Source: a virus | DNA length: 64,000 nt | IMG/VR virus record: IMGVR_UViG_3300032242_001752 | Span: 24,563 to 88,562 of that record | Direction: 5' to 3' (one strand) | Shown: positions 31,580 through 64,000 of the stretch, piece by piece | How positions within the stretch are numbered: position 1 is the stretch's first letter | Layout: the number at the start of each line of letters is the position of its first letter | Program-made: the position numbers and the translations under genes | The notes under the pieces: model-generated | Told to the model about the DNA's origin: nothing | The model's input: the letters and a program-made list of their open reading frames with translations, nothing else | Database searches by the model: none

Positions 31580-31644
31580 GTTTCCTTATCGGATGCTTCA
31601 TTGTTCTAGTCGTATTTGGAATTATAAGTTTTTTTAACGCATGA
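31576..31644 (+). CDS. 22-residue membrane peptide
   Basis: ATGA overlaps the previous stop and its own TGA overlaps the ATG of the methyltransferase gene. Product SFLIGCFIVLVVFGIISFF is one hydrophobic helix. Coupling on both sides suggests it is translated, though so short a frame remains uncertain. Confidence 0.45.
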   Translation: MSFLIGCFIVLVVFGIISFFNA

Positions 31645-32078
31645 CCCAAATAAACCCAGGGCTATACTCCAGTGCTACTGATGACTGGGGTACGCCTAAA
31701 CCATTATTTGATGAACTAGACTCTGAGTTTAGTTTTACCCTAGATGCCTGTGCTAGTGCTCATAACTTCAAAGTAAACAAGTATTTTACTAAAGAAGACA
31801 ACGCGCTAGTGCAGGACTGGGTAGGGATTGTCTGGATGAATCCGCCTTATGGACGTACTATTGGTCAGTGGATGAAAAAGGCATTTGACGAATCTCAAAA
31901 AGGTGCTACAGTAGTCTGTCTAGTACCTGCTAGAACTGATACCGCGTGGTGGCACGATTACGCTATGAAAGGCGAAATTCGTTTTCTACGTGGTAGAGTA
32001 AAGTTTCAACAACCGGGTAAGAGCGGAAAAGACTCCGCTCCATTCCCGAGTGCTATAGTAATTTTTAGGAGCAACTAA
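31641..32078 (+). CDS. DNA N6-adenine methyltransferase (phage Dam-like)
   Basis: 145 residues. Starts YSSATDDWGTPKPLFDELD, then FTLDACASAHNFKVNKYFT, catalytic NPPYGRTIGQWMKKA near residue 73 and VCLVPARTDTAWWHD. This is the short phage N6-adenine methyltransferase family (PF05869). It uses SAM to methylate adenine, probably to protect phage DNA from restriction. Overlaps neighbours by one to four bases. Confidence 0.9.
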   Translation: MTQINPGLYSSATDDWGTPKPLFDELDSEFSFTLDACASAHNFKVNKYFTKEDNALVQDWVGIVWMNPPYGRTIGQWMKKAFDESQKGATVVCLVPARTDTAWWHDYAMKGEIRFLRGRVKFQQPGKSGKDSAPFPSAIVIFRSN

Positions 32079-36613: not shown

Positions 36614-37031
36614 TTCATGGTGGGCAGATAAGCTCGGTACACCAAGACAATCGCAACCACAACCTAGATTACCGGAGCAACAGGTTCCGGTAGTAAACCC
36701 AGGAGTAACCCCACAGTACCCAGGGTATACGCCTAATCAAGGATATCCACCGGTAACTCAGCAACCTGTATATAACCCAGAGCTAGAGGGACACAGATTG
36801 CCAGCTAGCGCAATGACACCAAGTCGTTGTCCAAACTGTTCCAGCGGTAACTATGGCAAGATGACCCCAGAGACAGCCCCACGTTGCTATGACTGCGGAT
36901 ATCCAATTCAACAGTCAGGCTCAGGTATGCCAGGAGTTAGAATTCCTACAAACGGAAATACTGAAGCTGCTAAGCAAATCAGTACCCAAAATAATTTTAA
37001 TCCAAATACGATCATCGATAGGATTGGCTAA
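36603..37031 (+). CDS. Pro/Gln-rich protein with zinc ribbon
   Basis: 142 residues. N-terminal 60 residues are P/Q/Y-rich and disordered (PQYPGYTPNQGYPPVTQQP), followed by RCPNCSSGNYGKM and RCYDCGYPI, two CxxC knuckles. Immediately upstream of recA with one-base overlap, suggesting a link to recombination. No function known. Confidence 0.65.
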   Translation: MNSSSWWADKLGTPRQSQPQPRLPEQQVPVVNPGVTPQYPGYTPNQGYPPVTQQPVYNPELEGHRLPASAMTPSRCPNCSSGNYGKMTPETAPRCYDCGYPIQQSGSGMPGVRIPTNGNTEAAKQISTQNNFNPNTIIDRIG

Positions 37032-38047
37032 TGTCACTTCAAAAAGTTCTAGCACAAATTAATAAAAAGTATGGCGAAAACACCGTTGTACTAGCATCAG
37101 ACGTAGCTGCACCAACTCGTTTTACATCAGGTTCATTGTCGCTAGATATGATTTTGGGTGGAGGTTGGCCAACCAACCAGTGGCATGAAATTATCGGTGA
37201 GGCAAGCAATGGTAAGACTGCTTTGGCACTTAAGACCATTGCCGCTAACCAAAAGCGTGACCCTAACTTTACAACTATTTGGATTGCTGCTGAGCAGTGG
37301 GTACCAGAGTACGCAGAGATGTGTGGCGTAGACCAAACTCGCGTTCACGTATTTACCAGCAATGTCATGGAAACAGCCCTTACAGCGGTCCTAGAGTTCA
37401 TTGAAACCAAAGAAGTAGACTGTGTGGTAATTGACTCACTTCCAGCCCTCGTGCCTTCAGCAGAAGACGAGAAAGAGATGGATGAGTTTACCGTTGGCCG
37501 TGGAGCTATGCTTATGGGCAAGTTTTTCCGCAAGATGGAAAAGGCGGGTAAACGTGACCTACTAGGTGGCGAACGTCCTTTCATCGGTCTAATCATCAAC
37601 CAGTTCCGTATGAAGATTGGTGTCATGTATGGTGACCCTCGTACCACTCCAGGCGGAGAGGCTAAAAACTATTTCTTCTTTACTCGTATTGACGTTAAGC
37701 GTGACGAGTGGATTGAGATTGGCACAGGCCAGGAAAAGCGTAAAGTTGGTCAGACTATTAAGTTCCAAACTAGAAAGAACAAGTCAGCTCCTCCGGGACA
37801 AACTGCCTTTGTAGATTTCTACTTCGACGACGGCTCAGGCATCGACAAGGGCGAGTATGACTTTGCTAAAGAAATCGTATCGCTAGCAATCATTAATAAA
37901 ATTGTTACACGCGCTGGCGCGTATTACCGTTATTCAGAACGTCAGTGGCAGGGTGCAGATGCGTTGCTTAATTCAATTCGTGAAGAAGTTGATTTGCAAG
38001 AGCAGTTGACTAAGGACGTGATGAGCACCCTAAAGGGAGTGCTATAA
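37031..38047 (+). CDS. recA: RecA-type recombinase
   Basis: 338 residues. RecA core: SGSLSLDMILGGGWPTNQWHEIIGEASNGKT (Walker A 56-63), catalytic Glu region AEQW, Walker B VDCVVIDSLPALVP and INQFRMKIG with L2-like loop. Lacks part of the bacterial C-terminal domain. Catalyses strand exchange in phage recombination-dependent replication. Confidence 0.92.
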   Translation: MSLQKVLAQINKKYGENTVVLASDVAAPTRFTSGSLSLDMILGGGWPTNQWHEIIGEASNGKTALALKTIAANQKRDPNFTTIWIAAEQWVPEYAEMCGVDQTRVHVFTSNVMETALTAVLEFIETKEVDCVVIDSLPALVPSAEDEKEMDEFTVGRGAMLMGKFFRKMEKAGKRDLLGGERPFIGLIINQFRMKIGVMYGDPRTTPGGEAKNYFFFTRIDVKRDEWIEIGTGQEKRKVGQTIKFQTRKNKSAPPGQTAFVDFYFDDGSGIDKGEYDFAKEIVSLAIINKIVTRAGAYYRYSERQWQGADALLNSIREEVDLQEQLTKDVMSTLKGVL

Positions 38048-38250
38048 TGCCTAGAGTTAAGTTTATTAGAGCCTGCTCCATTATCGACTGTGCTGTAGAC
38101 CATTATGCTAAAGGATTTTGTAAACAGCATTACATGGCTGCAAACAGGGAAAAGTTTAATCCTAGTAAAAATCCAAATAAGCCAGCGGCACCAGAGTTTG
38201 ACTATGAAGACTTTTGGCAATTTGTGAAGAAAGAATTAAAAATTGGCTAA
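38047..38250 (+). CDS. Small zinc-binding protein
   Basis: 67 residues. RACSIIDCAVDHYAKGFCKQHY is a C..C..H..GxCxxHY metal-binding signature widespread in phage HNH-associated zinc proteins. The rest is charged. Starts on the recA stop and overlaps the nuclease gene by 8 bases. Confidence 0.65.
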   Translation: MPRVKFIRACSIIDCAVDHYAKGFCKQHYMAANREKFNPSKNPNKPAAPEFDYEDFWQFVKKELKIG

Positions 38251-38587
38251 ATCAGAGGGTCAAAAGCAATCCCTTAAACACGAGAAGCGTCTTGCCAAAG
38301 CTGTCGGAGGTCAACGTAATGTTGCCTCCGGCGCTTTTTGGTTTCGTAAAGGTGATGTCAGGTCTCAAGACCTTCTAATTGAGCATAAATGGACCGGTAA
38401 AAAGTCATTTACCCTTAAGTCAGATATCCTAGAGAAGATTACCACTGAAGCCCTCCTAGACAGTCGTACGCCTGTTTTAGGCATAAGCCTAAATGACGTT
38501 AATTATGTAGTCATGGACGAAAATGACTTTTTAACTATGCGCGAGTTTCTGATACAATGTATAGAGGAGCACACGGAAGAGAAGTGA
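38243..38587 (+). CDS. Holliday junction resolvase-like PD-(D/E)XK nuclease
   Basis: 114 residues from TTG 38243. GGQRNVASGAFWFRKGDVRSQDLLIEHKWTGKKSF contains the active site pattern GD..(x6)..E-H-K, followed by VLGISLNDVNYVVMDENDFL. This matches the resolvase family near recA in actinophages. It would cut branched DNA before packaging. The TTG start lacks an obvious ribosome binding site and depends on coupling. Confidence 0.75.
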   Translation: MAKSEGQKQSLKHEKRLAKAVGGQRNVASGAFWFRKGDVRSQDLLIEHKWTGKKSFTLKSDILEKITTEALLDSRTPVLGISLNDVNYVVMDENDFLTMREFLIQCIEEHTEEK

Positions 38588-39894: not shown

Positions 39895-40390
39895 GACAAC
39901 TTTAATTACAAACGACACTAGCAAGTATATCTTGGATATGCTTGATGAGCAAGGTCTATCAGTAGACCGTGAAACATATATGCCGCGTCCACAGCTACCT
40001 GCTGATATTACAGAGCTAGATGATGAAGACCTAATGCGTTTGTATACCCATCTGTCGGCATATAGCGAGTTCTTAGGAACTCAGCTAGCCTGCGCAATCA
40101 TTGATGAAAAAGACGCAGAGCGCAATAGAGATTACGCTGAGTCAGAGGCAATGCTACGTCACCAGACAAACAATGCCAAGACCACAGTGACTATTATCAA
40201 GGCCCTAGTTGATGGCGACCCTACACTTGCAGAAGTTCGTCAAGAGGCCCTGGTTAAGTATTCGTACCGTAAGATGCTAGAAACCATGGTAAACAACTAT
40301 GAGCGTAGCACTGCCGTATGTAGTCGTGAACTAACTCGTAGAACATCTAGCGATAACTTTAAGACTAGAAGTCGTAAGTTTACCGCATAA
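39887..40390 (+). CDS. Unknown helical protein between nuclease and resolvase
   Basis: 167 residues, overlapping the Cas4-like gene by 8 bases. Long helices (LMRLYTHLSAYSEFLGTQLACAII, RNRDYAESEAMLRHQTNNAKTT) and a basic end. Size and context would fit a recombination mediator, but there is no recognised motif, so function is left open. Confidence 0.6.
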   Translation: MSKTTLITNDTSKYILDMLDEQGLSVDRETYMPRPQLPADITELDDEDLMRLYTHLSAYSEFLGTQLACAIIDEKDAERNRDYAESEAMLRHQTNNAKTTVTIIKALVDGDPTLAEVRQEALVKYSYRKMLETMVNNYERSTAVCSRELTRRTSSDNFKTRSRKFTA

Positions 40391-40980
40391 TGGCAAAAGA
40401 TAAAGTATTTGGACCAGGCTTGGGGTTAGATGTAAATAACATCGCTATCGGCATAGACCAATCTTATTCAGGATTCGGAATAACTGTACTCGATGTAGAT
40501 GATGTATCTGACTATAAAACTACTGTATTTAAAGCAGAAGGACTACACGTTGACCGTTTAGTCTGGATTCAAGAAAAACTTACAGAAGTGATGGACTACT
40601 ATACTTATTATAATAGGCCTTCGTCAATCACCGTAGCTATGGAAGGTTATGCCTTTGGTACCACAATGGCCCATATGCTAGGTGAGTTAGGTGCCATAGT
40701 AAAATTGGTGTGCTATAACGAGCTGGATGGGTTTGAGGGAAAATATCCATACATTATTCCGCCAACTACTTTAAAGAAGTACATAACTGGAAAAGGCACA
40801 GGGGTACAGAAAAACCAAATCCTTTTAAATGTGTACAAGAAATGGGGCGTAGAGTTTAATGATGACAACGCCGCAGACTCGTATGCCCTAGCTATGCTAG
40901 CTGCAGGTAAAGGTTCCCTGGCCTACGAGCTAGAAATCCTGGAAAAGATTAAGGGACCTAACTTTAGGGAAAAGCCATAA
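40390..40980 (+). CDS. RuvC-like Holliday junction resolvase (RNase H fold)
   Basis: 196 residues. Metal-binding residues fit RuvC: D23 in IGIDQSYSGFGI, E in VAMEGYAFG near 84, and D in NAADSYALAMLA near 158. YIIPPTTLKKYITGKGT resembles the RuvC P.TVKKxVTG motif. Cuts four-way junctions; a second resolvase candidate besides 38243-38587. Confidence 0.85.
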   Translation: MAKDKVFGPGLGLDVNNIAIGIDQSYSGFGITVLDVDDVSDYKTTVFKAEGLHVDRLVWIQEKLTEVMDYYTYYNRPSSITVAMEGYAFGTTMAHMLGELGAIVKLVCYNELDGFEGKYPYIIPPTTLKKYITGKGTGVQKNQILLNVYKKWGVEFNDDNAADSYALAMLAAGKGSLAYELEILEKIKGPNFREKP

Positions 40981-49165: not shown

Positions 49166-50607
49166 ATATCGTATATTTAGGGGCAGAAGTTCCTAGCAAC
49201 AGAAGCATTCTTGACCACTCAAACGCTAAAAAGGTTGGGGTAAGTTACTGGGGCGTTGTTCGTAGAGGACTACCTAAGACAAAGAAGTATTTACTAGAAA
49301 ACTATTTTAAAGACGATGTAGAACTCTATGTTTTCCCTGGGATACCTGCTTCTACCACGCTTACAGAAGAAGAATTATTGGATTTTTCGGCCGATTATGA
49401 GGAATTTATTGCCGATAATTTACACCGAATTACCCTATTTTCGGAAATAAACCACCCTTCAGCCAGCCAAGAGTTCGTCGTACAGCAACGGGTAGCTGCT
49501 TGGAACGAAGTAGATGATGATAAGTTCGGTGTCGTCTATACATCAGGAAGCCTAGAGGACTTAGCAACTAGATATTTAAATATCTTTATTTCTGGAGATG
49601 TCGCTGAGGCATTGGAGCCTATTTGTAGAAAGTTCTCCTCTCAACATGGAACTAAGTTCCATATCTTAGGCTCTATCAAGCCTGATAAGTTCCGTAACTC
49701 CCCTTTTGAGACAACCAGCACTCTCGCTTGGCTTTCGCCTATGATGAGGGGCGAAACTATTGTATGGTTCGGTAATCAACTACACCGATACCCTAAGCGT
49801 ATGAAAGAACAGGCTCGCTCTCGTTACAAGGCTGCTTACGAGGCTGCTAACTTAGACTTTGATAAAATACTTGCCGATGACGCTGTGGAAATCTCTAAAT
49901 TGGCTGTATGGTCTTACCAACAGTTAGAACTTTGGGCAAATAACTCCTCTCATATATCAGATACAAGTGACTCAAACTTACCTGCCAATTTCTCTCAAAC
50001 ACCCCCCTCTAATGCTGATATATCAGGTACGGAATCAAACAAACTTATCACAAGAAATCCTGCTGAAATTCGCCCTCTCCCTGTGCTTGGAGTGGAAGTT
50101 TCTAGGGTAATTGAACAAGATGAAACTGGTCGTGATGTAATCAAAGAGGTTCCAGTTATTCGCTCTAACAGCACCAGTTTAAGACAATGTAACACTTGTT
50201 TTGTAAAGGATAACTGTCCTGCTTTTAAGCCTGATAACGCTTGTGCGTTTAACCTGCCAGTAGAGGTAAAAACCAAGGAACAACTTAAGGGCTTAATCAA
50301 CTCTCTCCTTGAAATACAAGGGCAACGAGTGGCATTTGCCAAGTTTGCCGAGGACTTAAATGGTGGATACCCTGACCCAAATACAGGCCTAGAAATGGAT
50401 AGATTCTTTAAAATGTTAAAAACAATTAAGGAATTAGACGAGAGCAAAGAAATTATGAGAGTGACTATGGAACGTGGAAGTTCTGCTGGAGTTCTCTCAA
50501 GTTTATTCGGTGAAAGGGCTCAAAAATTGACCGAATTGCCTAACAATGGCCTCAATGAAGAACAGACAAACGAGATAATTAAGAAGATAAATCCAACCGA
50601 TATATAG
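49162..50607 (+). CDS. Large two-domain protein with C-terminal cysteine cluster
   Basis: 481 residues. N-terminal 240 residues look alpha/beta (NIVYLGAEVPSN, then KVGVSYWGVVRRGLP) with a TSGSLEDLATRY segment. A Ser/Asn-rich linker (about 255-300) follows. The C-terminal domain has CNTCFVKDNCPAFKPDNAC, likely a zinc or iron-sulphur site, and long helices. It ends the rightward gene block. A DNA-packaging or tRNA-modifying role can be imagined but nothing in the sequence proves it. Confidence 0.55.
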   Translation: MNIVYLGAEVPSNRSILDHSNAKKVGVSYWGVVRRGLPKTKKYLLENYFKDDVELYVFPGIPASTTLTEEELLDFSADYEEFIADNLHRITLFSEINHPSASQEFVVQQRVAAWNEVDDDKFGVVYTSGSLEDLATRYLNIFISGDVAEALEPICRKFSSQHGTKFHILGSIKPDKFRNSPFETTSTLAWLSPMMRGETIVWFGNQLHRYPKRMKEQARSRYKAAYEAANLDFDKILADDAVEISKLAVWSYQQLELWANNSSHISDTSDSNLPANFSQTPPSNADISGTESNKLITRNPAEIRPLPVLGVEVSRVIEQDETGRDVIKEVPVIRSNSTSLRQCNTCFVKDNCPAFKPDNACAFNLPVEVKTKEQLKGLINSLLEIQGQRVAFAKFAEDLNGGYPDPNTGLEMDRFFKMLKTIKELDESKEIMRVTMERGSSAGVLSSLFGERAQKLTELPNNGLNEEQTNEIIKKINPTDI

Positions 50608-50656: not shown

Positions 50657-50668
50657 CCAACTCAACAA
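50657..50668. repeat. Solitary copy of the 12-mer CCAACTCAACAA
   Basis: Exact copy of the 12-mer that flanks the long palindromes at 57591-64000, here without partner arm. It lies in the 250-base gap between the convergent rightward and leftward gene blocks; the rest of the gap (50608-50813) shows no gene. Confidence 0.8.
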
Positions 50669-55755: not shown

Positions 55756-55757
55756 AG

Positions 55758-57119
55758 TTACTCCTCGTCACTTTCCTTGGCGACCTTGATAGTGATTCCA
55801 AAGTCTTTAGCAATACCGACCTTAGCAGTTGAGAACACCAGTTCAACAGCCTCTCGTTCATCATCAGAGAATCCGTTGATATAGGTTCCGATAGCGTAGT
55901 CCAAGCCTACATTAGAAATGTTCTTGGTAAGCATTTCTAGCCCTCGGGTAGATACAGGTGTTTCTATCTCGCCCTTGTCGTAGGTATCTCTAAGTTTTTG
56001 AGCCACATCTAGCAACGCAACAGACTTGATAAGTTTTTTCTCAATAGCCTTATCATAAGCAAACTCCCACTTGTGAGCAAACCTGTCTTTCCATGCTTGG
56101 TTCATAGGGCGAGAGCCACGATACATAGGGTTATGGTCACCGATAATAACTAGGTCAGGGTGAGCCTTGATAACCTCGCCACCATTTTCTAGCAACTGGA
56201 TTTCTCGTCTATCGTCTAGCAAGCCAAACAAAACTGTTGTGATTCGTTCAGGGATAAAGTCAATTTCGTTCAGTAGTAGAACTCCACCATTTCTTACCAA
56301 GTCTGTTACAGGTCCGTCTTGCCACTTATACTTACCAGCAGTTTCAGTTGGAATCCATGACCCGAATAGGTGGCTAGGTTCCAAGCCCACATTGGCAGAA
56401 ATGTTGTAGTAGCGATAATCCCTAGAACTTGCCCAAGCAAGAACACACATGGTCTTACCAGAGCCAGCGTGACCACGAATCAAAAGGTTCTGGTTGTTCG
56501 CCTTGACAATGTCCAACATCTCAAAGTCAGTCATACCAGACTTGCCGACATTTTTTCGGTTGATATAGCGTTCAGCCCACTTCTTATCTGGCACGCTTGC
56601 CAGTTCAGACATAACAGGCTTGTTAGATACAGGCAGACCTAGGAAAGTCTGGTCAGGCTCGGCAGTCGCAACAGAGTTGATAGCGACAAAAGCAGGTGCC
56701 ATTTCCATAATAGGCTTGAGAGATACGCCAGACTTTCTGCGATTATCTCTAAGATACTGGTTCAGGGAATCATCACCAGCGATTAGTTTTGCCTTTAGGT
56801 CACCGACCATAATGTCGTGAGCCAAGCCCTCGGTGACTGGAATAGAACCAGCAGACATAAGACGACTTGCTAAGGCTGTTATGTTTCCTGTTTCTGCGAA
56901 CTGGATATCGCTGTCGCTAAGAACGACTGCGTTAGGTTCAGATGTGATAGGGGAAATCTCTAGGGCAGGGATAAGTTCTCTAACTTGCCATGCCTGACCA
57001 CGACCACGACCACCAGTAGATAGTCGGGTAAAGGTTAGAACTTCCGTTGCTGTTGGAACTAGAACTGTCTGGTAATTACCAGTAGTAGTAATGCTCTCTA
57101 CGAATAATGCGATACTCAT
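55758..57119 (-). CDS. MoxR/CobS-type AAA+ ATPase
   Basis: 453 residues. Walker A GHAGSGKT (216-223), Walker B GVLLLNEID (279-287), sensor 1 IIGDHNP and sensor 2 region STRGLEML. The 210-residue N-terminal extension is unusual and probably a binding domain. Two bases separate it from the VWA gene, so they form a pair. First gene of the longest leftward operon, preceded by a 470-base regulatory gap. Confidence 0.88.
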   Translation of the reverse strand: MSIALFVESITTTGNYQTVLVPTATEVLTFTRLSTGGRGRGQAWQVRELIPALEISPITSEPNAVVLSDSDIQFAETGNITALASRLMSAGSIPVTEGLAHDIMVGDLKAKLIAGDDSLNQYLRDNRRKSGVSLKPIMEMAPAFVAINSVATAEPDQTFLGLPVSNKPVMSELASVPDKKWAERYINRKNVGKSGMTDFEMLDIVKANNQNLLIRGHAGSGKTMCVLAWASSRDYRYYNISANVGLEPSHLFGSWIPTETAGKYKWQDGPVTDLVRNGGVLLLNEIDFIPERITTVLFGLLDDRREIQLLENGGEVIKAHPDLVIIGDHNPMYRGSRPMNQAWKDRFAHKWEFAYDKAIEKKLIKSVALLDVAQKLRDTYDKGEIETPVSTRGLEMLTKNISNVGLDYAIGTYINGFSDDEREAVELVFSTAKVGIAKDFGITIKVAKESDEE

Positions 57120-57590: not shown

Positions 57591-57672
57591 TTGTTGAGTT
57601 GGAAGCCTTTAGCCATAAAAAGCGGTTTTCCCTCCTCCGGCAGGCTATGGCTAAAGGCTTCCAACTCAACAA
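57591..57672. repeat. Palindrome A of the TTGTTGAGTTGG family
   Basis: Arms of 27 bases (57591-57617 and 57646-57672) pair without mismatch: outer TTGTTGAGTTGG/CCAACTCAACAA, inner AAGCCTTTAGCCATA and its complement, loop of 28 bases. Lies between the terminator of the 57783 gene and the regulatory gap of the AAA+ operon. Confidence 0.97.
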
Positions 57673-57681
57673 ACTTGGTAA

Positions 57682-57722
57682 GAAAATGCCCCCCAAGCCA
57701 AGAGAGAAGTGGCTTGAGGGGC
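57682..57722 (-). terminator. Terminator after the 57783-58127 gene
   Basis: Leftward sense GCCCCTCAAGCCA, loop, TGGCTTGGGGGGC, then TTTTCTT; 12 pairs with one mismatch. A second hairpin TTAGTAGGC/GCCTACTAA (57760-57785) overlaps the gene's stop codon. Confidence 0.8.
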
Positions 57723-57782
57723 TGGCGAGGCACAGAAAGGGGTGAAATAAGCCTCGCCTGTTAGTAGGCTGGACAGTGCCTA

Positions 57783-58127
57783 CTAATCCTGTTTAGTCTG
57801 GTCTGTATCTTGTGGTGTATAGTAACCAAGATAGAACAGTAAGGTATTAGGTGTTACCTTTAGAGCATAGCATAGTTTAGGCACAAACCACAAAGGCATA
57901 GGGGCATTTCCTTTTATGTAGTTACCTACAGTTCCAGCAGTCACACCAAACTTGTTTAGTCTTACAAACTCGGCTAAGGACTTGTAGCCAATGCTGGTAT
58001 AACGATTCTTTATCCAGTTATAGCCAGCCTCGTTACGCTGTCGTTGTGTTTCCCAGTAGTTATGGTATTGAGCCATAATGGTATCTCGGTCACCACTACT
58101 TCTATCTATTTCTATTGGTTCAGACAT
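57783..58127 (-). CDS. XRE-type helix-turn-helix protein
   Basis: 114 residues, RBS AAGGAG. HTH in YKSLAEFVRLNKFGVTAGTVGNYIKG; conserved LCYALKVTPNTLLFYLG end. Likely paralogue of 52663-52905. Polar N-terminal extension of about 30 residues. Candidate regulator; last gene of its unit. Confidence 0.7.
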   Translation of the reverse strand: MSEPIEIDRSSGDRDTIMAQYHNYWETQRQRNEAGYNWIKNRYTSIGYKSLAEFVRLNKFGVTAGTVGNYIKGNAPMPLWFVPKLCYALKVTPNTLLFYLGYYTPQDTDQTKQD

Positions 58128-58207
58128 TTCTATTTCTCCTTGTAATAAGTTTGGCTTGTAATACGGATAGTTGGATAATGATAAGGCTTAGTAGTTTTAT
58201 TAGGCTA

Positions 58208-58897
58208 TTATTCATCATAGTTGCTACAGCACTCCAATAAACAGTAGCCACGCAGTTCCATACCGAGTTCGTGGGTGATTTCTACATCTTGCTCGTAGAT
58301 GTTGTTTCCGTCTTGCCAGAACGCAGACATAGCGAAACAGTCGTTTTCGTCAATACTAGATAGGCTTATCTTGATAGTAGGGTATTGCTCGGCAAGACTA
58401 TTTAGAGCCTCTACTGGTGGTGACCACGCACTATACATAGCATAGACCAGTTCTAGTGAGTTCTCAACAGGCTTATCATCAAAAGATAGTTCACCCATTA
58501 CTTCTAGGTCTAGGGTCGCCTTATCACCGATTTCCCACTTAGTTCCCCAGTTGCGACAGTTCCACTCATACCACTCGTCACCAGTCGCTAAGTCATGTAG
58601 TATCTTAGGCAAAAAGTTATCTAGGTTTTCATCTAGGTCGTCAGATAACTCAACAGGTTTATTTAGTTCTGCTAGGTCAGGGTCAGCGTTGATAATGTTG
58701 GTGAACTCTGCTTGTTCCTTACCAAGATACGCACTAAGGTTATTAGGCTTTATAATGTTCCATAGCAAGAATACGCCCTCAACCTTTTCCTCTGGATTAT
58801 GAGGATTAGCATAAGGCTTAGCAAGCCTATTCTTGATTTCAGTAACTATCTCTTGTTCACCAGTAATGGTGACTATACTACTCGCCCAGTTCGGCAT
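58208..58897 (-). CDS. YubB-like ferredoxin-fold protein (Api92-like)
   Basis: 229 residues. Begins MPNWASSIVTITGEQEIV, then WYEWNCRNWGTKWEIGD and YSAWSPPVEALNSLAEQYPTIKI, the pattern of the plasmid/phage YubB ferredoxin-like family (DUF1281). Acidic. Function unknown; common on plasmids and phages as an accessory protein. Confidence 0.8.
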   Translation of the reverse strand: MPNWASSIVTITGEQEIVTEIKNRLAKPYANPHNPEEKVEGVFLLWNIIKPNNLSAYLGKEQAEFTNIINADPDLAELNKPVELSDDLDENLDNFLPKILHDLATGDEWYEWNCRNWGTKWEIGDKATLDLEVMGELSFDDKPVENSLELVYAMYSAWSPPVEALNSLAEQYPTIKISLSSIDENDCFAMSAFWQDGNNIYEQDVEITHELGMELRGYCLLECCSNYDE

Positions 58898-59004
58898 TAG
58901 TCGTTCTCCTCAATACAAGTGTGGTTATTCCAATCTTGCTCGGCTGTTTCAGAATAGTTATCCACTATAAATCCACAATGATTACATTTAGTCCAGCGTG
59001 CCAT
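58897..59004 (-). CDS. 35-residue zinc-finger peptide
   Basis: MARWTKCNHCGFIVDNY start, and NNHTCIEEND end: CxxC..HxC zinc site. Overlaps the stop of the upstream gene and the start of the downstream gene (TAATG type), so translation is likely coupled. Confidence 0.55.
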   Translation of the reverse strand: MARWTKCNHCGFIVDNYSETAEQDWNNHTCIEEND

Positions 59005-59252
59005 TAGTTTTCCTCTTTCTCTTTGATTAGTTCTGCTAGGTCATCAGCCAGTTCGTAACCAGTCTGAGTGAACTCTATGTGACCAGTTAGGGTGTCTTGT
59101 CCGTCTGCGACAAACTCAGCCCAAACTTGTTCTACTTTATCTCTTTCCAAGCCACTATCTACAAAATAGTTCTTGTCGTAATACTCTACAATGATTTCAT
59201 CATCTAGCGTATTGTCCTGTAATAGCATCTCTATTAGTTTTCTGACTTTCAT
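59004..59252 (-). CDS. Small acidic protein
   Basis: 82 residues, first gene of its unit, with AGGAAATGAGAG upstream. Helix MKVRKLIEMLLQDNTLDDEIIVEYYD and acidic C-terminus. No family recognised. Confidence 0.6.
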   Translation of the reverse strand: MKVRKLIEMLLQDNTLDDEIIVEYYDKNYFVDSGLERDKVEQVWAEFVADGQDTLTGHIEFTQTGYELADDLAELIKEKEEN

Positions 59253-59286
59253 CTCTCATTTCCTTTCTGTGAAATGTAATACGATT

Positions 59287-59347
59287 CTATACCCCAACTC
59301 TCTCTCTTTACTACCCTGTGCGACATAGTGTTATCAAATCTTTATAA
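59287..59347 (-). promoter_or_regulatory. Promoter-like element B (divergent copy)
   Basis: Leftward sense TTATAAAGATTTGATAACA (59347-59329), then GGGGTATAG further downstream; here the distance between the two parts is longer than in the other copies. Confidence 0.5.
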
Positions 59348-59360
59348 AAGCCTAACTAAC

Positions 59361-59442
59361 TTGTTGAGTTGGTAGCCATTTAGCCATAGCCCGTCGTCGG
59401 GTAAAAGAGCTGTTTATGGCTAAATGGCTACCAACTCAACAA
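59361..59442. repeat. Palindrome B of the TTGTTGAGTTGG family
   Basis: Arms of 28 bases (59361-59388, 59415-59442): outer TTGTTGAGTTGG, inner TAGCCATTTAGCCATA and exact complements; loop of 26 bases. Confidence 0.97.
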
Positions 59443-59446
59443 AATA

Positions 59447-59493
59447 GATAAGCCCCACCAGCAAAACTAAGGAAAATGCTGGTGAGGCTTATC
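59447..59493 (-). terminator. Terminator after the 59561-60112 gene
   Basis: GATAAGCC-CACCAGCA pairs with its complement over 16 bp (one mismatch), then TATTTT in the leftward sense. Confidence 0.75.
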
Positions 59494-59560
59494 GCCAGAG
59501 AACCAGTCTGGCAAGGTTGGTAGGCTAGCCCCCGCAAAGAAACTAGCCCACCAAGTTTAT

Positions 59561-60112
59561 TTAGTATTCAGTAATCTCGGTGTCGTCATGACTAAATCCG
59601 TAACCACTGACCTCAAGGTCACTGTTGCTGATTTCAACATCTACGCAAGGGTTTAGGTCCTCTTCAATGTTTTCCCAGTCGTAACCTCTTGGTGCTGTAA
59701 TGTCTATGGTTCCCTTGACCATAATGCTAATAGTCTTGGTAACCTCTTGGTCAAGCCCGAAAATGTCGCACAACTTATCACGAACTTCCTCGTCAATGCT
59801 GTCCCACTCCTCGTTTAGCCACTCGTCAAGTTGCTCTACCTTACGCTTGTATTCGTTGATAGTCGCATACTTTTCGTTGTTGCTGGCTTCTTTTTCCTTG
59901 ATAACCTTGTTTAGTGCTACGAGTTCTTGCTGTAAGGTTGTATCAGGGTTGTTGCTAAACCAGACATTACCTACATACCCATAAAACTTTAGGTCATAGC
60001 CTAAAATCTCAACTAGGGGCTTGATAGGTGTTGTTGCTAGTTCTGTTAGACCTGCCTGTGCGATTTTCTCGTCTAGGGTCAGTTCTGGCTTTGGTTCTTG
60101 GTTCTCTAACAT
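59561..60112 (-). CDS. Acidic coiled-coil protein
   Basis: 183 residues from ATG 60112. Middle part is helical coiled coil (LVALNKVIKEKEASNNEKYA, then INEYKRKVEQLDEWL); C-terminal third has beta strands and acidic residues (DVEISNSDLEVSGYGF). Start context AGAGAGATGATTACTATG is shared with the DUF932 gene. No family recognised. Confidence 0.6.
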   Translation of the reverse strand: MLENQEPKPELTLDEKIAQAGLTELATTPIKPLVEILGYDLKFYGYVGNVWFSNNPDTTLQQELVALNKVIKEKEASNNEKYATINEYKRKVEQLDEWLNEEWDSIDEEVRDKLCDIFGLDQEVTKTISIMVKGTIDITAPRGYDWENIEEDLNPCVDVEISNSDLEVSGYGFSHDDTEITEY

Positions 60113-60178
60113 AGTAATCATCTCTCTTTCTTGGTTGTCGGGATTTCTATGTATCTTTATTATGCCTGATAATCTCTC

Positions 60179-60209
60179 TTACCCCACCGGTCGTTATCAA
60201 ACTGTTACA
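60179..60209 (-). promoter_or_regulatory. Promoter-like element C
   Basis: Leftward sense TGTAACAGTTTGATAACGAC, six bases, GGGGTAA. TTGATA and TAAGAG are 13 bases apart, as in the other copies. Confidence 0.6.
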
Positions 60210-60227
60210 TTTCAGATCACAATAAAC

Positions 60228-60310
60228 TTGTTGAGTTGGTTGCCTATTTGCCTATAAAGCCGTTTTATGCGCGCAAGCGAGCATAGGCAAATAGGCAACC
60301 AACTCAACAA
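60228..60310. repeat. Palindrome C of the TTGTTGAGTTGG family
   Basis: Arms of 28 bases (60228-60255, 60283-60310): outer TTGTTGAGTTGG, inner TTGCCTATTTGCCTAT and exact complements. The loop can form a further small hairpin. Confidence 0.97.
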
Positions 60311-60314
60311 AGCC

Positions 60315-60351
60315 GATAAGACCCCCCTGCCATTTGGCAGAGGGGCTTATC
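60315..60351 (-). terminator. Terminator after the DUF932 gene
   Basis: GATAAG..CCCC-CTGCCA pairs with TGGCAG-GGGG-CTTATC; the U-run is poor. It sits eight bases past the DUF932 stop. Confidence 0.7.
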
Positions 60352-60358
60352 TGGCTTG

Positions 60359-61366
60359 TTAGGCGTTGGCGAACTCTAAGACAGTTCCTAGAATACGAGC
60401 CTTTTCGGCATTTACTACTGGGTCAAAACCAGAGGCGGCTCCAATTAGAGCCTCGCCACCCTTGCGACCAGTTCTAAAGTAGTCAATGCGTTCCGTCAAG
60501 GTGTTCAAGGCTCCCCATGCGGTTCCCTTGATGTTCTCGTTGGTAGGGCTGACTGACCAGAGGTCATGTAGCAAATCAACCTTTTCGTTCCAACGAGTAG
60601 TTGCTACCTTTGGACCAGTCACATCTGGCTCCTCGTAAATGGATTTTACGAGGGTATCAAACTGCGAATCGGTCATGGCGGTTTCAAACAACTTTTTAGC
60701 CATGAGTTCAAAGTTGTCCATGTGGTCAAAGGTAAGACCTAGAACTCTGCGAGCCTCCTCAATTCTGCCACCGACAGTTGCGGTGTGGCGAATCTTGAAA
60801 GACTGCTTAGAACCCTTGATAGCCATGTTTAGCGTGTTCTGGCAGACTACACGAACAGGGGTAATGTTCGCTTGAACTGCGGTAGACCCGTCATGCGAGG
60901 TGTGAACGAGCAAGTAAGTTGTGGTCTTGTCGTTAGCACCATTAGGGTCAAGAACGAACTCTCGGGGAACTACAAGCGAGCCGAACACGACACGCCCTCC
61001 CTTGATAGAGCCTGCTGATTCCCAAGTTGCTCCTCCGTCTAGGATTCCGTCACCAAAAGCGAACAGTTCCTCGTTTTGAACAACCTTGTATCTGTCACCG
61101 ACAACAGATAGAACCTCTGGTGTCTGGTCAAACGGATTATCACGAACTACTAACTGATTAGCGGTAGTGTTGCGGTAACCCTCTGGGATAGCCAAATCCT
61201 CTAACCGAACGTTCCAGTTATTTAGTTTGGCAGATTCTAGCATTTCGCTAGTTGTTACATGTTGGTCTTTATCAAACAATACATTTGCTAGACCATGCCA
61301 AGCGGGTTCACCTCTAAGGGCAAAAGCAACCTGACCATTTGAACCGATTTCTAAGGCGTGAGCCAT
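60359..61366 (-). CDS. DUF932 phage/plasmid-like protein
   Basis: 335 residues from ATG 61366. GEPAWHGLANVLFDKDQHVTTSEML at the start, VVQNEELFAFGDGIL, then VRVVCQNTLNMA and a DNFELMAKKLFE helix. This is the DUF932 family (TIGR03299) found in phages and plasmids; molecular role unknown, some copies are linked to recombination. It forms a single-gene unit with own promoter element and terminator, suggesting high expression. Confidence 0.9.
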   Translation of the reverse strand: MAHALEIGSNGQVAFALRGEPAWHGLANVLFDKDQHVTTSEMLESAKLNNWNVRLEDLAIPEGYRNTTANQLVVRDNPFDQTPEVLSVVGDRYKVVQNEELFAFGDGILDGGATWESAGSIKGGRVVFGSLVVPREFVLDPNGANDKTTTYLLVHTSHDGSTAVQANITPVRVVCQNTLNMAIKGSKQSFKIRHTATVGGRIEEARRVLGLTFDHMDNFELMAKKLFETAMTDSQFDTLVKSIYEEPDVTGPKVATTRWNEKVDLLHDLWSVSPTNENIKGTAWGALNTLTERIDYFRTGRKGGEALIGAASGFDPVVNAEKARILGTVLEFANA

Positions 61367-61434
61367 AGTAATCACTCTCTTTCGTGTTTAGTGTTAGCGT
61401 TGTTGCCAACAAGATAAGACTATTAGTTCTCTCA

Positions 61435-61467
61435 CATACCCCATCTGTCGTTATCAAATCGTAATAA
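61435..61467 (-). promoter_or_regulatory. Promoter-like element D
   Basis: Leftward sense TTATTACGATTTGATAACGA, then GGGGTATG with TTGATA and TATGTG separated by 13 bases. Lies 69 bases before the DUF932 ATG. Confidence 0.65.
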
Positions 61468-61469
61468 AC

Positions 61470-61551
61470 TTGTTGAGTTGGTTGCTTTGTTGCTTTACAG
61501 CCTTTATGTCGTCCCGATAGACGACAAGCAACAAAGCAACCAACTCAACAA
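61470..61551. repeat. Palindrome D of the TTGTTGAGTTGG family
   Basis: Arms of 26 bases (61470-61495, 61526-61551): outer TTGTTGAGTTGG, inner TTGCTTTGTTGCTT and exact complements. The loop holds a 7-bp hairpin TGTCGTC/GACGACA. Confidence 0.97.
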
Positions 61552-61592
61552 AAAAAAGCCCCTCAGCGAGCATTTGTTCTCGCTGAGGGGCT
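61550..61592 (-). terminator. Intrinsic terminator after the DUF3846 gene
   Basis: Leftward sense AGCCCCTCAGCGAG, loop, CTCGCTGAGGGGCT (14 bp perfect) and seven T. Textbook structure. Confidence 0.95.
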
Positions 61593-61631
61593 GGGGTTGG
61601 CGAGCCAAGACCAAAAGTCTCGCCAAGTTTA

Positions 61632-61976
61632 TTAGATTCGTTCTATGGTTCTTGTGTAATCCATAAGAGCCGAAATCTGCGTGTCGGCTAGTCCAACGGT
61701 TTCACCGTTTTCGTTATAGCCACCAGTAATAATCACATCTCCAACGATGTAATCGGTAAGTCCATAGTCCTCACTCCAAAGGGCAGTTGCGATAGGATTT
61801 TGGTCTAATCCGTTCAACTTGCCCTCCTCGTTTAGATAGAGGTCAATGTCCTTAGTAGGCAGGGGAACAACTTGTATCCACCCTCCTACTGCTTTCTGGG
61901 CAATGTTGAGGAAAGTGCCCTCCTCAAAATCAACCAGTTCCTTATTTCCGTCAGTGCGAATAATGAGTGCTTTCAT
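61632..61976 (-). CDS. DUF3846-like protein
   Basis: 114 residues. KALIIRTDGNKELVDFEEGTFLNIAQKAVGGWIQVVPL, then DLYLNEEGKLNGLDQNPIAT and DYIVGDVIITGG match DUF3846, a common accessory protein of phages and mobile elements of Actinobacteria and Firmicutes; role unknown. Start overlaps the preceding stop. Confidence 0.8.
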   Translation of the reverse strand: MKALIIRTDGNKELVDFEEGTFLNIAQKAVGGWIQVVPLPTKDIDLYLNEEGKLNGLDQNPIATALWSEDYGLTDYIVGDVIITGGYNENGETVGLADTQISALMDYTRTIERI

Positions 61977-62197
61977 TAGTCCTCCTCCTCCTCATCATCA
62001 ACATCACAAGAGAAACAAGAACCGTCTAGGTCTAGTTCTCGTTCACAACCACCACACACAGCCTCAAACTCAATGCTTTCGGTTCCTGAGTAGTGTGAGT
62101 TTAGGTCAGCCAAGAAAGCCTTTTCGGCTTGTTCTTGGGTTTCACCCTCTACTACACCCTCGTATTCATAGAGGGCTTTGATTCTGTAAAATGCCAT
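61976..62197 (-). CDS. Small acidic protein with zinc knuckles
   Basis: 73 residues, GGAGAGAACCAAATG at the start. Strand-helix-strand (YRIKALYEYEGVVEGETQEQ) then CGGCERELDLDGSCFSC and a run of acidic residues. No family recognised. Confidence 0.65.
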   Translation of the reverse strand: MAFYRIKALYEYEGVVEGETQEQAEKAFLADLNSHYSGTESIEFEAVCGGCERELDLDGSCFSCDVDDEEEED

Positions 62198-62263
62198 TTG
62201 GTTCTCTCCTAATCGTTTTGTGTAGCCTCTGCTGACTACTCATTTAGTATGGCAGTTTCTCTA

Positions 62264-62296
62264 CATACCCTACCCACCGTTATCATTTCGTTATAA
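62264..62296 (-). promoter_or_regulatory. Promoter-like element E
   Basis: Leftward sense TTATAACGAAATGATAACGG, then GGGTATG at the standard distance, 67 bases before the ATG at 62197. Confidence 0.65.
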
Positions 62297-62303
62297 AGCT
62301 GGT

Positions 62304-62371
62304 CCAACTCAACAAAGCCCAAAGCCCGATCTTTTATTAGGGGCTTCGGGCTTTGGGCTTTGTTGAGTTGG
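62304..62371. repeat. Palindrome E (reversed orientation of the 12-mer)
   Basis: Arms of 26 bases (62304-62329, 62346-62371) start with CCAACTCAACAA on the left and end with TTGTTGAGTTGG on the right, inner AGCCCAAAGCCCGA and exact complements; loop of 16 bases. The 12-mer is in opposite orientation compared with A-D. Confidence 0.97.
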
Positions 62372-62373
62372 GC

Positions 62374-62415
62374 AAAAAAAAGCCCCCTAGCACTCTGGGA
62401 AAGTGCTAGGGGGCT
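62374..62415 (-). terminator. Intrinsic terminator after the 62460 gene
   Basis: Leftward sense AGCCCCCTAGCACT, loop, AGTGCTAGGGGGCT (14 bp perfect) then eight T including the last stem base region. Confidence 0.95.
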
Positions 62416-62459
62416 GGTTGGTAGGGCGAAACGAAAGAAAAATCCCCTACCAAGTTTGT

Positions 62460-62666
62460 TTAGACATCAGGAATAGTTCCCTCGTTCTCGTCTGTATCCT
62501 GCCACCAGAATACATCTTGGAACTCGGTTGTATCTAAGACCTGCCACCAATCTAAGTCAAGATTGGTTTCGGGGTTTTGGATTTTTTCTATCGCCTGTTC
62601 TGGTGAATCTGCCTCAATTTTGGTTTCATACCAGATAGTCGCTTTTTGCTGAACTCTGTATTCCAT
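62460..62666 (-). CDS. Small acidic Trp-rich protein
   Basis: 68 residues from ATG 62666, with GGAGGAG inside the upstream gene. EYRVQQKATIWYETKIEADS resembles a small strand-rich fold; W-rich (LDWWQVL, VFWWQDTDEN). No family recognised. Confidence 0.6.
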   Translation of the reverse strand: MEYRVQQKATIWYETKIEADSPEQAIEKIQNPETNLDLDWWQVLDTTEFQDVFWWQDTDENEGTIPDV

Positions 62667-62667
62667 T

Positions 62668-62814
62668 TTACTCCTCCCCTGCCAACGGAACATCTCCGTC
62701 ATTGTTCAGGACTAGTTCAAGGTCGTATAGTGCCTCATCAGCACTCGTAGCCCCTGCGTGGTAGTCGCTATAAATAGCCTTTATAGCGTTTAGTTGCTGG
62801 TTGCTTAGTTCCAT
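62668..62814 (-). CDS. 48-residue acidic helical protein
   Basis: MELSNQQLNAIKAIYSDYHA continues to an acidic end. ATG overlaps the stop of the gene before it, and its stop is one base from the next start, so it is coupled on both sides. No family recognised. Confidence 0.55.
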   Translation of the reverse strand: MELSNQQLNAIKAIYSDYHAGATSADEALYDLELVLNNDGDVPLAGEE

Positions 62815-63047
62815 TAGTTATCCCCCTCAACTTCGTCATCACAATTACAATCAGGGTCATCACAGCCACCTAGTTCTAGGTGAGCCTTGCGAGCCTCCTC
62901 TATCATTGCGAATACATCATTTAGGGCAGAGCCTAATAGGACTGGTTTGCGTTCTGGCTCAATAGGTTCTAGACCCTTGTATTCATCACAGATAAAACAG
63001 ACCTTAGTATCTACTGGAAAAACACTTCCACAAAATACACATTTCAT
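62814..63047 (-). CDS. Small zinc-ribbon protein
   Basis: 77 residues from ATG 63047 (GAGAGAACCAAAAATG). MKCVFCGSVFPVDTKVCFIC forms a rubredoxin-like knuckle pair; C-terminal GGCDDPDCNCDDE is a second cysteine group. Acidic. First gene of its unit. Confidence 0.65.
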   Translation of the reverse strand: MKCVFCGSVFPVDTKVCFICDEYKGLEPIEPERKPVLLGSALNDVFAMIEEARKAHLELGGCDDPDCNCDDEVEGDN

Positions 63048-63118
63048 TTTTGGTTCTCTCAACTTTCGTTTGTTGTTGTAGCCTTGTTGCTACAAGAAAA
63101 AGAATAACAACTCTCACG

Positions 63119-63151
63119 CATACCCTACTGGTCGTTATCATTTCGTTATAA
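63119..63151 (-). promoter_or_regulatory. Promoter-like element F
   Basis: Leftward sense TTATAACGAAATGATAACGA, six bases, GGGTATG; 13 bases between ATGATA and TATGCG. Confidence 0.65.
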
Positions 63152-63157
63152 TAGCCC

Positions 63158-63232
63158 CCAACTCAACAAAGCCACATAGCCAAACACTTTTTATCTAATG
63201 GAGTGTTTGGCTATGTGGCTTTGTTGAGTTGG
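63158..63232. repeat. Palindrome F (reversed orientation of the 12-mer)
   Basis: Arms of 31 bases (63158-63188, 63202-63232): CCAACTCAACAA then AGCCACATAGCCAAACACT and exact complements; loop of 13 bases. Longest perfect arms of the family. Confidence 0.97.
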
Positions 63233-63233
63233 C

Positions 63234-63271
63234 AAAAAAAAAGCCCCCTGCCGAGAGAGTGGCAGGGGGCT
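63234..63271 (-). terminator. Intrinsic terminator after the 63279 gene
   Basis: Leftward sense AGCCCCCTGCC, loop, GGCAGGGGGCT (11 bp perfect) then a long T run. Confidence 0.95.
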
Positions 63272-63278
63272 GGCTTAT

Positions 63279-63386
63279 TTAGTCATCTTCCCCGAAATAC
63301 TGCTCAGGGTCATACTCGGGTGGTTCTTCTGGTGAATACCAGTTTTTTTCGCAGGAGCAACAAGGTCGGTCTTCGCACTCACACAT
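63279..63386 (-). CDS. 35-residue cysteine-rich peptide
   Basis: MCECEDRPCCSCEKNWYSPE with six cys in the first 12 residues region, then acidic. Its ATG overlaps the stop of the upstream gene. Likely metal-binding; no family recognised. Confidence 0.55.
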   Translation of the reverse strand: MCECEDRPCCSCEKNWYSPEEPPEYDPEQYFGEDD

Positions 63387-63543
63387 TAGATTTCTCCTCG
63401 TATTGAGCCTCGACAAAACACTCCCAGTCGTGTGAAGGGTCGTTTATCCACTCCTCGGCTTCGGCTTTGCTGGAAAAGGTGGGTGCCCAAGAAATAGGCA
63501 CCCAACCATAACCCTCGCCATAATCAGCGTAAACTCGCCACAT
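63379..63543 (-). CDS. 54-residue unknown protein
   Basis: MWRVYADYGEGYGWVPISWA, then FSSKAEAEEWINDPSHDWEC and acidic end. ATG overlaps the upstream stop. The S-KAEAEEWI helix resembles small phage proteins of the same size; function unknown. Confidence 0.6.
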   Translation of the reverse strand: MWRVYADYGEGYGWVPISWAPTFSSKAEAEEWINDPSHDWECFVEAQYEEKSNV

Positions 63544-63881
63544 TAGTCTTGCTCCTCTGGCTCGTTCCAGTCGGTTCCGTCAAAGATTTTACCGTTTACC
63601 AGTTCACCAATCGCCCCAGAGTAGAGGTCAAAGTAATAAAGGTAAAGGTCGGTTTTTTGAAGGTCCTCAATAGATTCGGGTTTTTCAATCCCCATCTCTT
63701 TCCACCGATTCTGGTTTTCAAAGTCTAACTCTGTCCAGTCCAGTTGGATGTTGGCAGTATAAATTGGCACTGTGCTGTCTGCGTATTCACCTGCCGAGTC
63801 TTCTGGGTATCTCTGCGAGAGGATAAAGGCTCGGTCGTTCCAAATCTCCTCGTTTATTGCTTGTTGTGTGTAAAGGGACAT
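63543..63881 (-). CDS. Small acidic protein
   Basis: 112 residues from ATG 63881; a TTG nine bases upstream is possible. INEEIWNDRAFILSQRYPED and a TANIQLDWTELDFENQNRW core; acidic. First gene of its unit, after promoter-like element G. No family recognised. Confidence 0.6.
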   Translation of the reverse strand: MSLYTQQAINEEIWNDRAFILSQRYPEDSAGEYADSTVPIYTANIQLDWTELDFENQNRWKEMGIEKPESIEDLQKTDLYLYYFDLYSGAIGELVNGKIFDGTDWNEPEEQD

Positions 63882-63947
63882 TTCTCTCAACTTTCGTTTA
63901 GTGTAATAGCCTTGCTTGGCTACTTGTTTAGTATTTCAGGTTTAGCA

Positions 63948-63980
63948 CATACCCCAGTTGGCGTTATCAAACTGTTATAA
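63948..63980 (-). promoter_or_regulatory. Promoter-like element G
   Basis: Leftward sense TTATAACAGTTTGATAACGC, then GGGGTATG with 13 bases between TTGATA and TATGTG. Confidence 0.65.
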
Positions 63981-63987
63981 AGCGATC

Positions 63988-64000
63988 CCAACTCAACAAA
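63988..64000. repeat. Left arm of a further palindrome, cut by the window end
   Basis: CCAACTCAACAA at 63988-63999 in the same place relative to element G as in palindromes E and F; the rest lies outside the window. Confidence 0.8.

What the first reader, a model, noticed from the sequence alone, without database searches (positions are those of the whole stretch)
57591..64000. Family of long perfect palindromes with a constant 12-mer and copy-specific, self-complementary arms
Six complete palindromes and one cut by the window end occur at every boundary between leftward mini-operons (57591, 59361, 60228, 61470, 62304, 63158, 63988). Each has arms of 26-31 bases with no mismatch. The 12-mer TTGTTGAGTTGG is constant, but the rest of the arm differs in every copy while its partner arm changes to match. 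That is the covariation expected if the paired structure, not the sequence, is kept. Each has a normal intrinsic terminator beside it, so termination alone does not explain them. Inner arms follow a loose GCC(N4)GCC rhythm. Possible roles: cruciform sites for recombination or module exchange, processing or stability of RNA ends, replication pausing, or a protein target. I know of start-associated inverted repeats in cluster K mycobacteriophages as a distant analogy, but not this family.
Basis: seen in the sequence. Interest (0 to 1): 0.9.

Follow-up and report, generated by a model that had tools for sequence, protein, structure and literature searches.

The report
Exchangeable DNA hairpins at phage gene boundaries
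A lineage of uncultured phages of (probably) Actinobacteria carries a perfectly matched DNA hairpin at nearly every gene-block boundary of one early region; every hairpin has the same 12-letter base but its own arm, and the evidence suggests the arms are kept matched by DNA copying rather than by RNA folding, so these look like swappable boundary pieces.

Summary
Seven palindromes lie at the stated places (six complete; arms 27, 28, 28, 26, 26, 31). Three more lie at the contig's other end. Relatives in IMG/VR bring the total to 76 distinct copies, confined to one early leftward array of one actinophage lineage. The constant end word differs between phages and occurs in either orientation. Homologous junctions covary strongly.

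Covariation alone does not show selection for pairing. Inner arms are 1120/1120 Watson-Crick with no G-U; the terminators beside them have 3.5% G-U. Mismatches occur only in the outer 12-mers, and loops are sometimes inverted in place. That is the published signature of replication template switching between arms, and it points to a DNA-level element. Whole hairpins also move between junctions: one is 67/68 identical in two phages with unrelated flanks.

Each sits in a composite cassette: terminator, hairpin, 11-bp direct repeats (response-regulator-box-like), gene. Best reading: a DNA boundary and exchange joint resembling T4-type PeSLs in use. Membership in PeSL, ESAS, attC, REPIN or Rfam families is not met or not shown. 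The function is inferred. Unexpectedly, GATC is avoided genome-wide but retained at the hairpins in two relatives.

The parts
57591..57672 (-). type A palindrome, arms 27, loop 28; boundary before the AAA-ATPase gene (55758-57119)
   Evidence: covariation with 12 other phages
59361..59442 (-). type A palindrome, arms 28, loop 26; loop inverted relative to L012:4572-4653
60228..60310 (-). type A palindrome, arms 28, loop 27
61470..61551 (-). type A palindrome, arms 26, loop 30, with a mini-hairpin in the loop; before the DUF932 gene
62304..62371 (-). type B palindrome, arms 26, loop 16; GATC at the loop/stem border; 67/68 identical to a hairpin at a different junction in G001
63158..63232 (-). 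type B palindrome, arms 31, loop 13
63987..64000 (-). start of a type B palindrome cut by the window and contig end
57688..57722 (-). terminator-like hairpin upstream (sense) of the 57591 palindrome
59447..59493 (-). terminator-like hairpin upstream of the 59361 palindrome
60315..60351 (-). terminator-like hairpin upstream of the 60228 palindrome
61557..61592 (-). intrinsic terminator, U-run abutting the palindrome
62381..62415 (-). intrinsic terminator abutting the palindrome
63242..63271 (-). intrinsic terminator abutting the palindrome
59329..59347 (-). 11-bp-period box (variant)
60192..60210 (-). 11-bp-period box (variant)
61449..61467 (-). 11-bp-period direct-repeat box (TTATTACGATTTGATAACG)
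62278..62296 (-). 11-bp-period box TTATAACGAAATGATAACG
63133..63151 (-). 11-bp-period box TTATAACGAAATGATAACG
63962..63980 (-). 11-bp-period box TTATAACAGTTTGATAACG
37031..38047 (+). RecA (possible recombination partner)
   Evidence: PF00154, E 1.3e-49
38243..38587 (+). Holliday-junction-resolvase-like protein (phrog_2002)
   Evidence: E 8e-25; no Pfam match
40390..40980 (+). RuvC-like Holliday-junction resolvase (phrog_159)
   Evidence: E 3e-28; weak match to solved RuvC
31641..32078 (+). Dam-type N6-adenine methylase (GATC specificity assumed from the family)
   Evidence: PF05869, E 6e-33

Best explanation
Each palindrome is the middle piece of a composite boundary cassette at a transcription-unit junction: terminator of the upstream unit, then a 62-106 nt hairpin unit, then 11-bp direct-repeat (response-regulator-like) boxes and the promoter region of the next unit. 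The hairpin acts as DNA, not as mRNA. Its arms are kept perfectly matched because one arm is recopied from the other by template switching in replication; the same process inverts loops. Its constant 12-bp ends let whole units replace one another, in either loop orientation. The most likely role is an extrudable DNA joint that separates neighbouring units and at which units are exchanged among related phages, probably with help from the phage's RecA and two Holliday-junction-resolvase-like proteins. Shown: anatomy, placement, covariation without wobble, loop inversion, unit transfer, lineage restriction. Inferred: the template-switch cause, cruciform formation, the exchange function, the enzymes.
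For: (1) Seventy-six distinct palindromes: inner arms 1120 Watson-Crick, 0 G-U, 0 mismatch; outer 12-mers 902 / 1 / 9 (Fisher P 3e-4 between the two). Adjacent terminators: 595 / 22 / 11 (P 1e-15). Selection on RNA pairing should tolerate G-U; arm recopying should not. (2) Covariation at homologous junctions: 10/26, 15/27 and 12/26 pairs changed on both sides; scores 0.344, 0.457, 0.283 against at most 0.110 when slid. (3) In-place loop inversion: G000 59361 vs L012 4572, loop identity 0.86 inverted vs 0.31 direct, flanks alignable. Arm homogenisation plus spacer inversion is the described template-switch outcome. (4) Unit transfer: G000 62304 and a hairpin at another junction of G001 are 67/68 identical with unrelated flanks and different downstream genes. 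Type A and B swap at the same junction between G000 and G001/G004. (5) Placement: a terminator-like hairpin directly upstream for 49 of 63 copies with enough upstream sequence; 11-bp-period boxes directly downstream in all phage groups (z 5.6-12.2). The window genome and every relative searched over essentially its whole length have no hairpin of this kind outside the array. (6) RecA and two resolvase-like genes are conserved in the lineage.
Against: No experiment shows cruciforms, exchange or insulation. At several homologous junctions arms and loops are recognisably inherited in place, so exchange is not constant. Single 12-mers or bare inverted pairs in G016 and G015/G017 fit a protein-binding site as well as an exchange handle. 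No gene was found that tracks the perfect palindromes. Terminator detection fails for 14 of 63 copies. Loop features (mini-hairpin, A-run, GCWGTT) are usually kept in one orientation, which a strand-symmetric element would not require.
Confidence: 0.42

Rival explanations
1. The constant 12-mer is the functional part: a binding site, usually in inverted pairs, for a phage or host DNA-binding protein (operator, stoperator-like or architectural). The perfect inner arms are a by-product of template switching seeded by the inverted pair.
For: The end word is nearly constant within a genome but differs between phages, as operators coevolving with a repressor do. It persists as bare inverted pairs in G015/G017 and as single copies in G016, where inner arms are absent. 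Orientation is free (types A and B). A HTH-like gene (57783-58127) lies in the array.
Against: The HTH gene is not found in G008, which has the hairpins, nor in G015 or G016. Total lengths, and so the spacing between the paired sites, are spread over many values without evident helical phasing. Isolated 12-mers outside arrays are mostly in coding sequence and partly explained by conserved protein. Stem length is narrow (23-31) and loops keep structure, which a bare binding pair would not need.
Confidence: 0.27
2. RNA-level insulator: read-through transcripts fold the hairpin, which is cut by RNase III or acts as a backup terminator, separating neighbouring mRNAs.
For: Position between terminator and next promoter-like boxes; 23-31 bp perfect stems are good double-stranded RNA; sequence is free while pairing is kept; no palindrome is seen where no co-directional unit lies upstream (first boxes of the array).
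Against: Zero G-U in 1120 inner pairs versus 22/628 in the neighbouring terminators. The hairpin is followed by no U-run. Strong terminators precede it in many cases, so little RNA should reach it. Loop inversion would replace the loop RNA by its complement.
Confidence: 0.17
3. Selfish or neutral palindromes: short inverted repeats that grow, perfect themselves and spread by replication errors, with no benefit to the phage.
For: Template-switch signature, unit copying between junctions and three-way forms are all expected of self-propagating inverted repeats.
Against: Strict confinement to early-array junctions, about one per junction, conserved geometry, narrow stem length, conserved end core (GTTGG) and loop features across phages about 50% identical in core proteins, and GATC retention against genome-wide avoidance.
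Confidence: 0.12

Closest known systems
PeSLs (promoter-early stem-loops) of T4-type phages
   Same: Composite stem-loop plus promoter cassettes at gene boundaries in a variable early region, proposed to mediate modular shuffling (known to me from memory and as cited in PMC4503421; the original papers are not held)
   Different: There the stem-loop is the terminator. Here a separate perfect palindrome lies between a terminator and regulator-type boxes, with constant ends, copy-specific arms and no wobble
ESAS of cluster K mycobacteriophages (PMC3203893, PMC11373665)
   Same: Inverted repeats at intergenic sites upstream of early genes; repeat consensus differs between subclusters; role unknown
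   Different: ESAS are imperfect 15-17 bp repeats with short spacers that contain a SigA-like promoter and are tied to a start-associated 13-mer; here the arms are perfect, 23-31 bp, with no promoter inside and no SAS consensus
Intergenic inverted repeats of cluster O mycobacteriophages and cluster EG Microbacterium phages (PMC4351075, PMC7302621)
   Same: Many copies in leftward right-end genes of actinophages; recombination between copies suggested in cluster O
   Different: Those are invariant short dyads; here only the outer 12 bp are constant and the inner arms are copy-specific
Quasipalindrome correction / template-switch hairpins (PMC8604942, PMC8794818)
   Same: Arm homogenisation and spacer inversion
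   Different: That is a mutational process seen at scattered sites; here an organised family with constant ends at one site class
Integron attC sites
   Same: Structure kept while sequence varies, at cassette boundaries; the 12-mer of some phages fits GTTRRRY
   Different: No tyrosine integrase; the R-box fit fails in other phages of the family; main arms have no extrahelical bases

Membership tests
PeSL | Stem-loop that is itself an effective terminator plus an early sigma-70-like promoter in one cassette | tested here: not met
   The palindrome has no following U-run; the terminator is a separate hairpin; promoter-like sites are not above chance in the region
PeSL | Recombination between copies shuffles modules | tested here: inconclusive
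   Hairpin unit identical at different junctions with unrelated flanks; modules differ between hairpins; no direct recombinant or mini-circle seen
Cluster K ESAS/SAS | SAS 13-mer GGGATAGGAGCCC at start codons | tested here: not met
   One 2-mismatch hit, chance level
Cluster K ESAS/SAS | Imperfect 15-17 bp inverted repeat containing SigA promoter hexamers | tested here: not met
   Arms are perfect, 23-31 bp; regulator boxes lie outside
Integron attC | R boxes RYYYAAC/GTTRRRY | tested here: not met
   Fits TTGTTGAGTTGG and TTGTTAGGTTGG but not TTGTTACGTTGG or TGTTTGGGTTGG (read from the words listed; consensus from memory)
Integron attC | Tyrosine integrase in the genome | tested here: not met
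   PF00589 absent in G000, G001, G002, G008; positive in all 14 controls
REPIN/RAYT | Y1 (RAYT) transposase | tested here: not met
   PF01797 absent in G000, G001, G002; sub-threshold hit in G008. A transposase supplied by the host cannot be excluded
Invertible segment with serine recombinase | Resolvase/invertase domain | tested here: not met
   PF00239 absent
Intrinsic terminator | Stem followed by U-run | tested here: not met
   Flanks read
Rfam RNA families | Match at gathering score | tested here: not met
   Only tRNAs; sub-threshold generic microRNA-precursor hits
Template-switch hairpins | Arm homogenisation without wobble intermediates, spacer inversion | tested here: met
   criteria from PMC8604942 and PMC8794818
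Cluster A stoperators | Asymmetric sites in fixed orientation to transcription, bound by the repressor | tested here: not met
   Sites are inverted pairs and types A and B occur in both orientations; repressor binding not testable

The most novel reading that the evidence does not exclude
The phages use a set of interchangeable DNA hairpins with constant ends as joints for swapping gene modules without a site-specific recombinase: the hairpins extrude, are cut by the phage's Holliday-junction resolvases and rejoined with RecA, with Dam methylation of loop or flank GATC sites as a switch; a recombinase-free analogue of a cassette system.
Probability: 0.13. Interest if true: 0.86.

Novelty: new variant of a known kind. 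Interest (0 to 1): 0.6.

Why it matters
It is an unusually clean natural set in which perfect stem covariation can be read as a copying process rather than as selection on RNA, a warning for covariation-based RNA discovery in phage and metagenome data. If the exchange reading holds, it shows how phages shuffle early gene modules in hypervariable regions without a dedicated recombinase. The same hairpins coincide with contig ends (8 of 29 loci examined begin inside a 12-mer), so they probably break up metagenome assemblies and hide these regions.

Tried and rejected
RNA family membership (Rfam at gathering score, only tRNAs; relaxed search gives generic microRNA-like hits). Integron, RAYT and invertase readings (no enzyme; controls positive for integrase and resolvase). 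Single 12-mers as a genome-wide binding site: four unpaired exact copies in G000 against about 0.01 expected looked striking, but three are in coding sequence, one conserved at protein level (RAIQLNKRR) in phages with another 12-mer; left unproven. HTH protein 57783-58127 as the binder: recognition-helix differences parallel the end word in three phages, but the gene is missing from G008. Search of isolated phages with one junction: no match. Streptomyces phage EGole, which shares the DUF932 gene, has no such hairpins in its first 14 kb. An early GU count was spoiled by alignment rows overwriting loci and was redone.
Full report
Observation. The window is bases 24563-88562 of an 88,562-base virus record. 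Within the window no other perfect arm of this length exists; folding as DNA gives z-scores of -11 to -14. The 12-mer occurs in two orientations (types A and B). Three more copies lie at the contig's left end (L009); two of those are three-way junctions in which the 12-mer stem carries two complete hairpins, a form also present in G001 and G003. The contig starts and ends inside a palindrome with a 14-base shared end that is only the family word, so it does not prove circularity.

Relatives. Searching with the DUF932 protein next to the hairpins, with the end words, and with the adjacent ATPase gave many contigs of the same phage lineage. Core proteins of G001 and G002 are about 80-97% identical to the window's, those of G008, G015 and G016 about 40-70%. 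Perfect hairpins are confined to the leftward array. The end word is TTGTTGAGTTGG in 41 of 76 distinct copies, otherwise TTGTTAGGTTGG, TTGTTACGTTGG, TTGTTGGGTTGG, TGTTTGGGTTGG, TGTTTGTGTTGG and rare variants. It is usually one per genome, but mixed in L013, and in G003 the single hairpins use TTGTTACGTTGG while the double hairpins use TTGTTGAGTTGG. G015 and G017 have inverted 11-mers without inner arms, G016 single words. Unrelated phages that share only DUF932 have none.

Artefact check. Copies recur in independent samples, some identically. Eight of 29 contigs examined begin inside an end word, as expected if real palindromes break assemblies. Fine-scale perfection should still be checked in reads.

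Covariation and its cause. Three alignments of homologous junctions show strong compensatory change far above slid controls. But nearly all changes are Watson-Crick to Watson-Crick. Over 76 palindromes the inner arms have no wobble and no mismatch in 1120 pairs, the outer 12-mers have one wobble and nine mismatches, while the adjacent terminators have 22 wobbles and 11 mismatches in 628 pairs. Note that copies were included only if at least 18 pairs formed, and mismatches followed by fewer than four pairs were trimmed, so the claim is about the hairpin class, not about degenerate forms. Loops are inverted in place at least once between close homologues. Compensatory changes are usually thought to pass through G-U, and template switching makes perfect arms and inverted loops directly (PMC8794818, PMC8604942). 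I therefore read the matched arms as mainly a copying effect at DNA level. That weakens the inference of selection for pairing; it does not remove it, because placement, stem length, end words and loop features are conserved.

Anatomy. In the transcribed direction the order is stop codon, terminator-like hairpin, palindrome, then 11-bp-period direct repeats, then the gene. The repeats differ between phages that share the same end word: ATAACG-N5-ATAACG in the window phage and L012, GTTCACCT-type in G001, G004 and L013. These resemble MtrA and PHO boxes respectively (two 5-6 nt repeats separated by 5 nt, PMC5650626; 11-nt direct repeat units, PMC7866108). The resemblance is by eye; no binding was tested. 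Promoter hexamers were not above chance, so promoter positions are inferred.

Mobility. The hairpin at 62304 is 67/68 identical to one upstream of a different gene family in G001, with unrelated flanks. The same junction can carry type A in one phage and type B in another, and gene modules between hairpins differ. This is what replacement of units through their constant ends would give. No integrase, serine recombinase or Y1 transposase was found; RecA and two Holliday-junction-resolvase-like proteins are present and conserved.

GATC. GATC is depleted about six-fold in G000, G001 and G002, which encode a Dam-type methylase, and absent from G015. Yet in G001 9 of 31 sites lie in or within 8 nt of hairpins (expected 0.26, P 1e-11), in the G004 locus 5 of 8, in G000 3 of 37 (P 0.006); G003 and L015 have none. 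Copies are not fully independent, so P values are optimistic. This fits a DNA-level role in some members but is not a general feature.

Verdict. A real, lineage-wide family; a new variant of phage boundary elements. Mechanism: DNA-level boundary and exchange joint, 0.42; binding-site reading 0.27; RNA insulator 0.17; neutral or selfish 0.12. Host: an actinobacterium is inferred from WhiB, from DNA polymerase relatives in Streptomyces phages and from CobT-like/VWA relatives in Gordonia and Brevibacterium phages; no host was demonstrated.

Noticed in passing
whole record G000; relatives G001, G002, G008, G015: Strong restriction-site avoidance: GATC obs/exp 0.14-0.18 in three phages with a Dam-type gene, zero GATC and zero CCGG in about 95 kb of G015, zero CCGG in G008. 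In G001 about 29% of the remaining GATC sites are at the hairpins.
   Followed up: partly
window 59329-59347, 60192-60210, 61449-61467, 62278-62296, 63133-63151, 63962-63980; L350; L013; L027: Homologous operons of close relatives carry different 11-bp-period regulator boxes (MtrA-like, PHO-like, or DnaA-box-like TTATCCACA in G015 and G008), as if phages rewired the same early genes to different host regulators.
   Followed up: partly
L009:1008-1099, L009:2143-2248; L350; L355; L364; L365: Double-hairpin (three-way junction) versions on the same 12-mer stem, with single bulged bases in the window phage's copies.
   Followed up: partly
L015:389-528: 140-bp palindrome with 64-bp perfect arms that includes the regulator boxes as well as the end word.
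   Followed up: no
window 38607-38981, 41922-42203, 49162-50607, 32078-32569: Phage-encoded WhiB, SpoVS-like protein, queuine tRNA-ribosyltransferase-like protein and pyrimidine-dimer glycosylase.
   Followed up: no
window 53605-57119: MoxR-like AAA ATPase next to a VWA/CoxE-type protein, beside the array in several phages of the lineage.
   Followed up: no
window 10408-10419, 16799-16810, 50657-50668; contig 12590: Four unpaired exact copies of the 12-mer against about 0.01 expected; mostly coding, significance unclear.
   Followed up: partly
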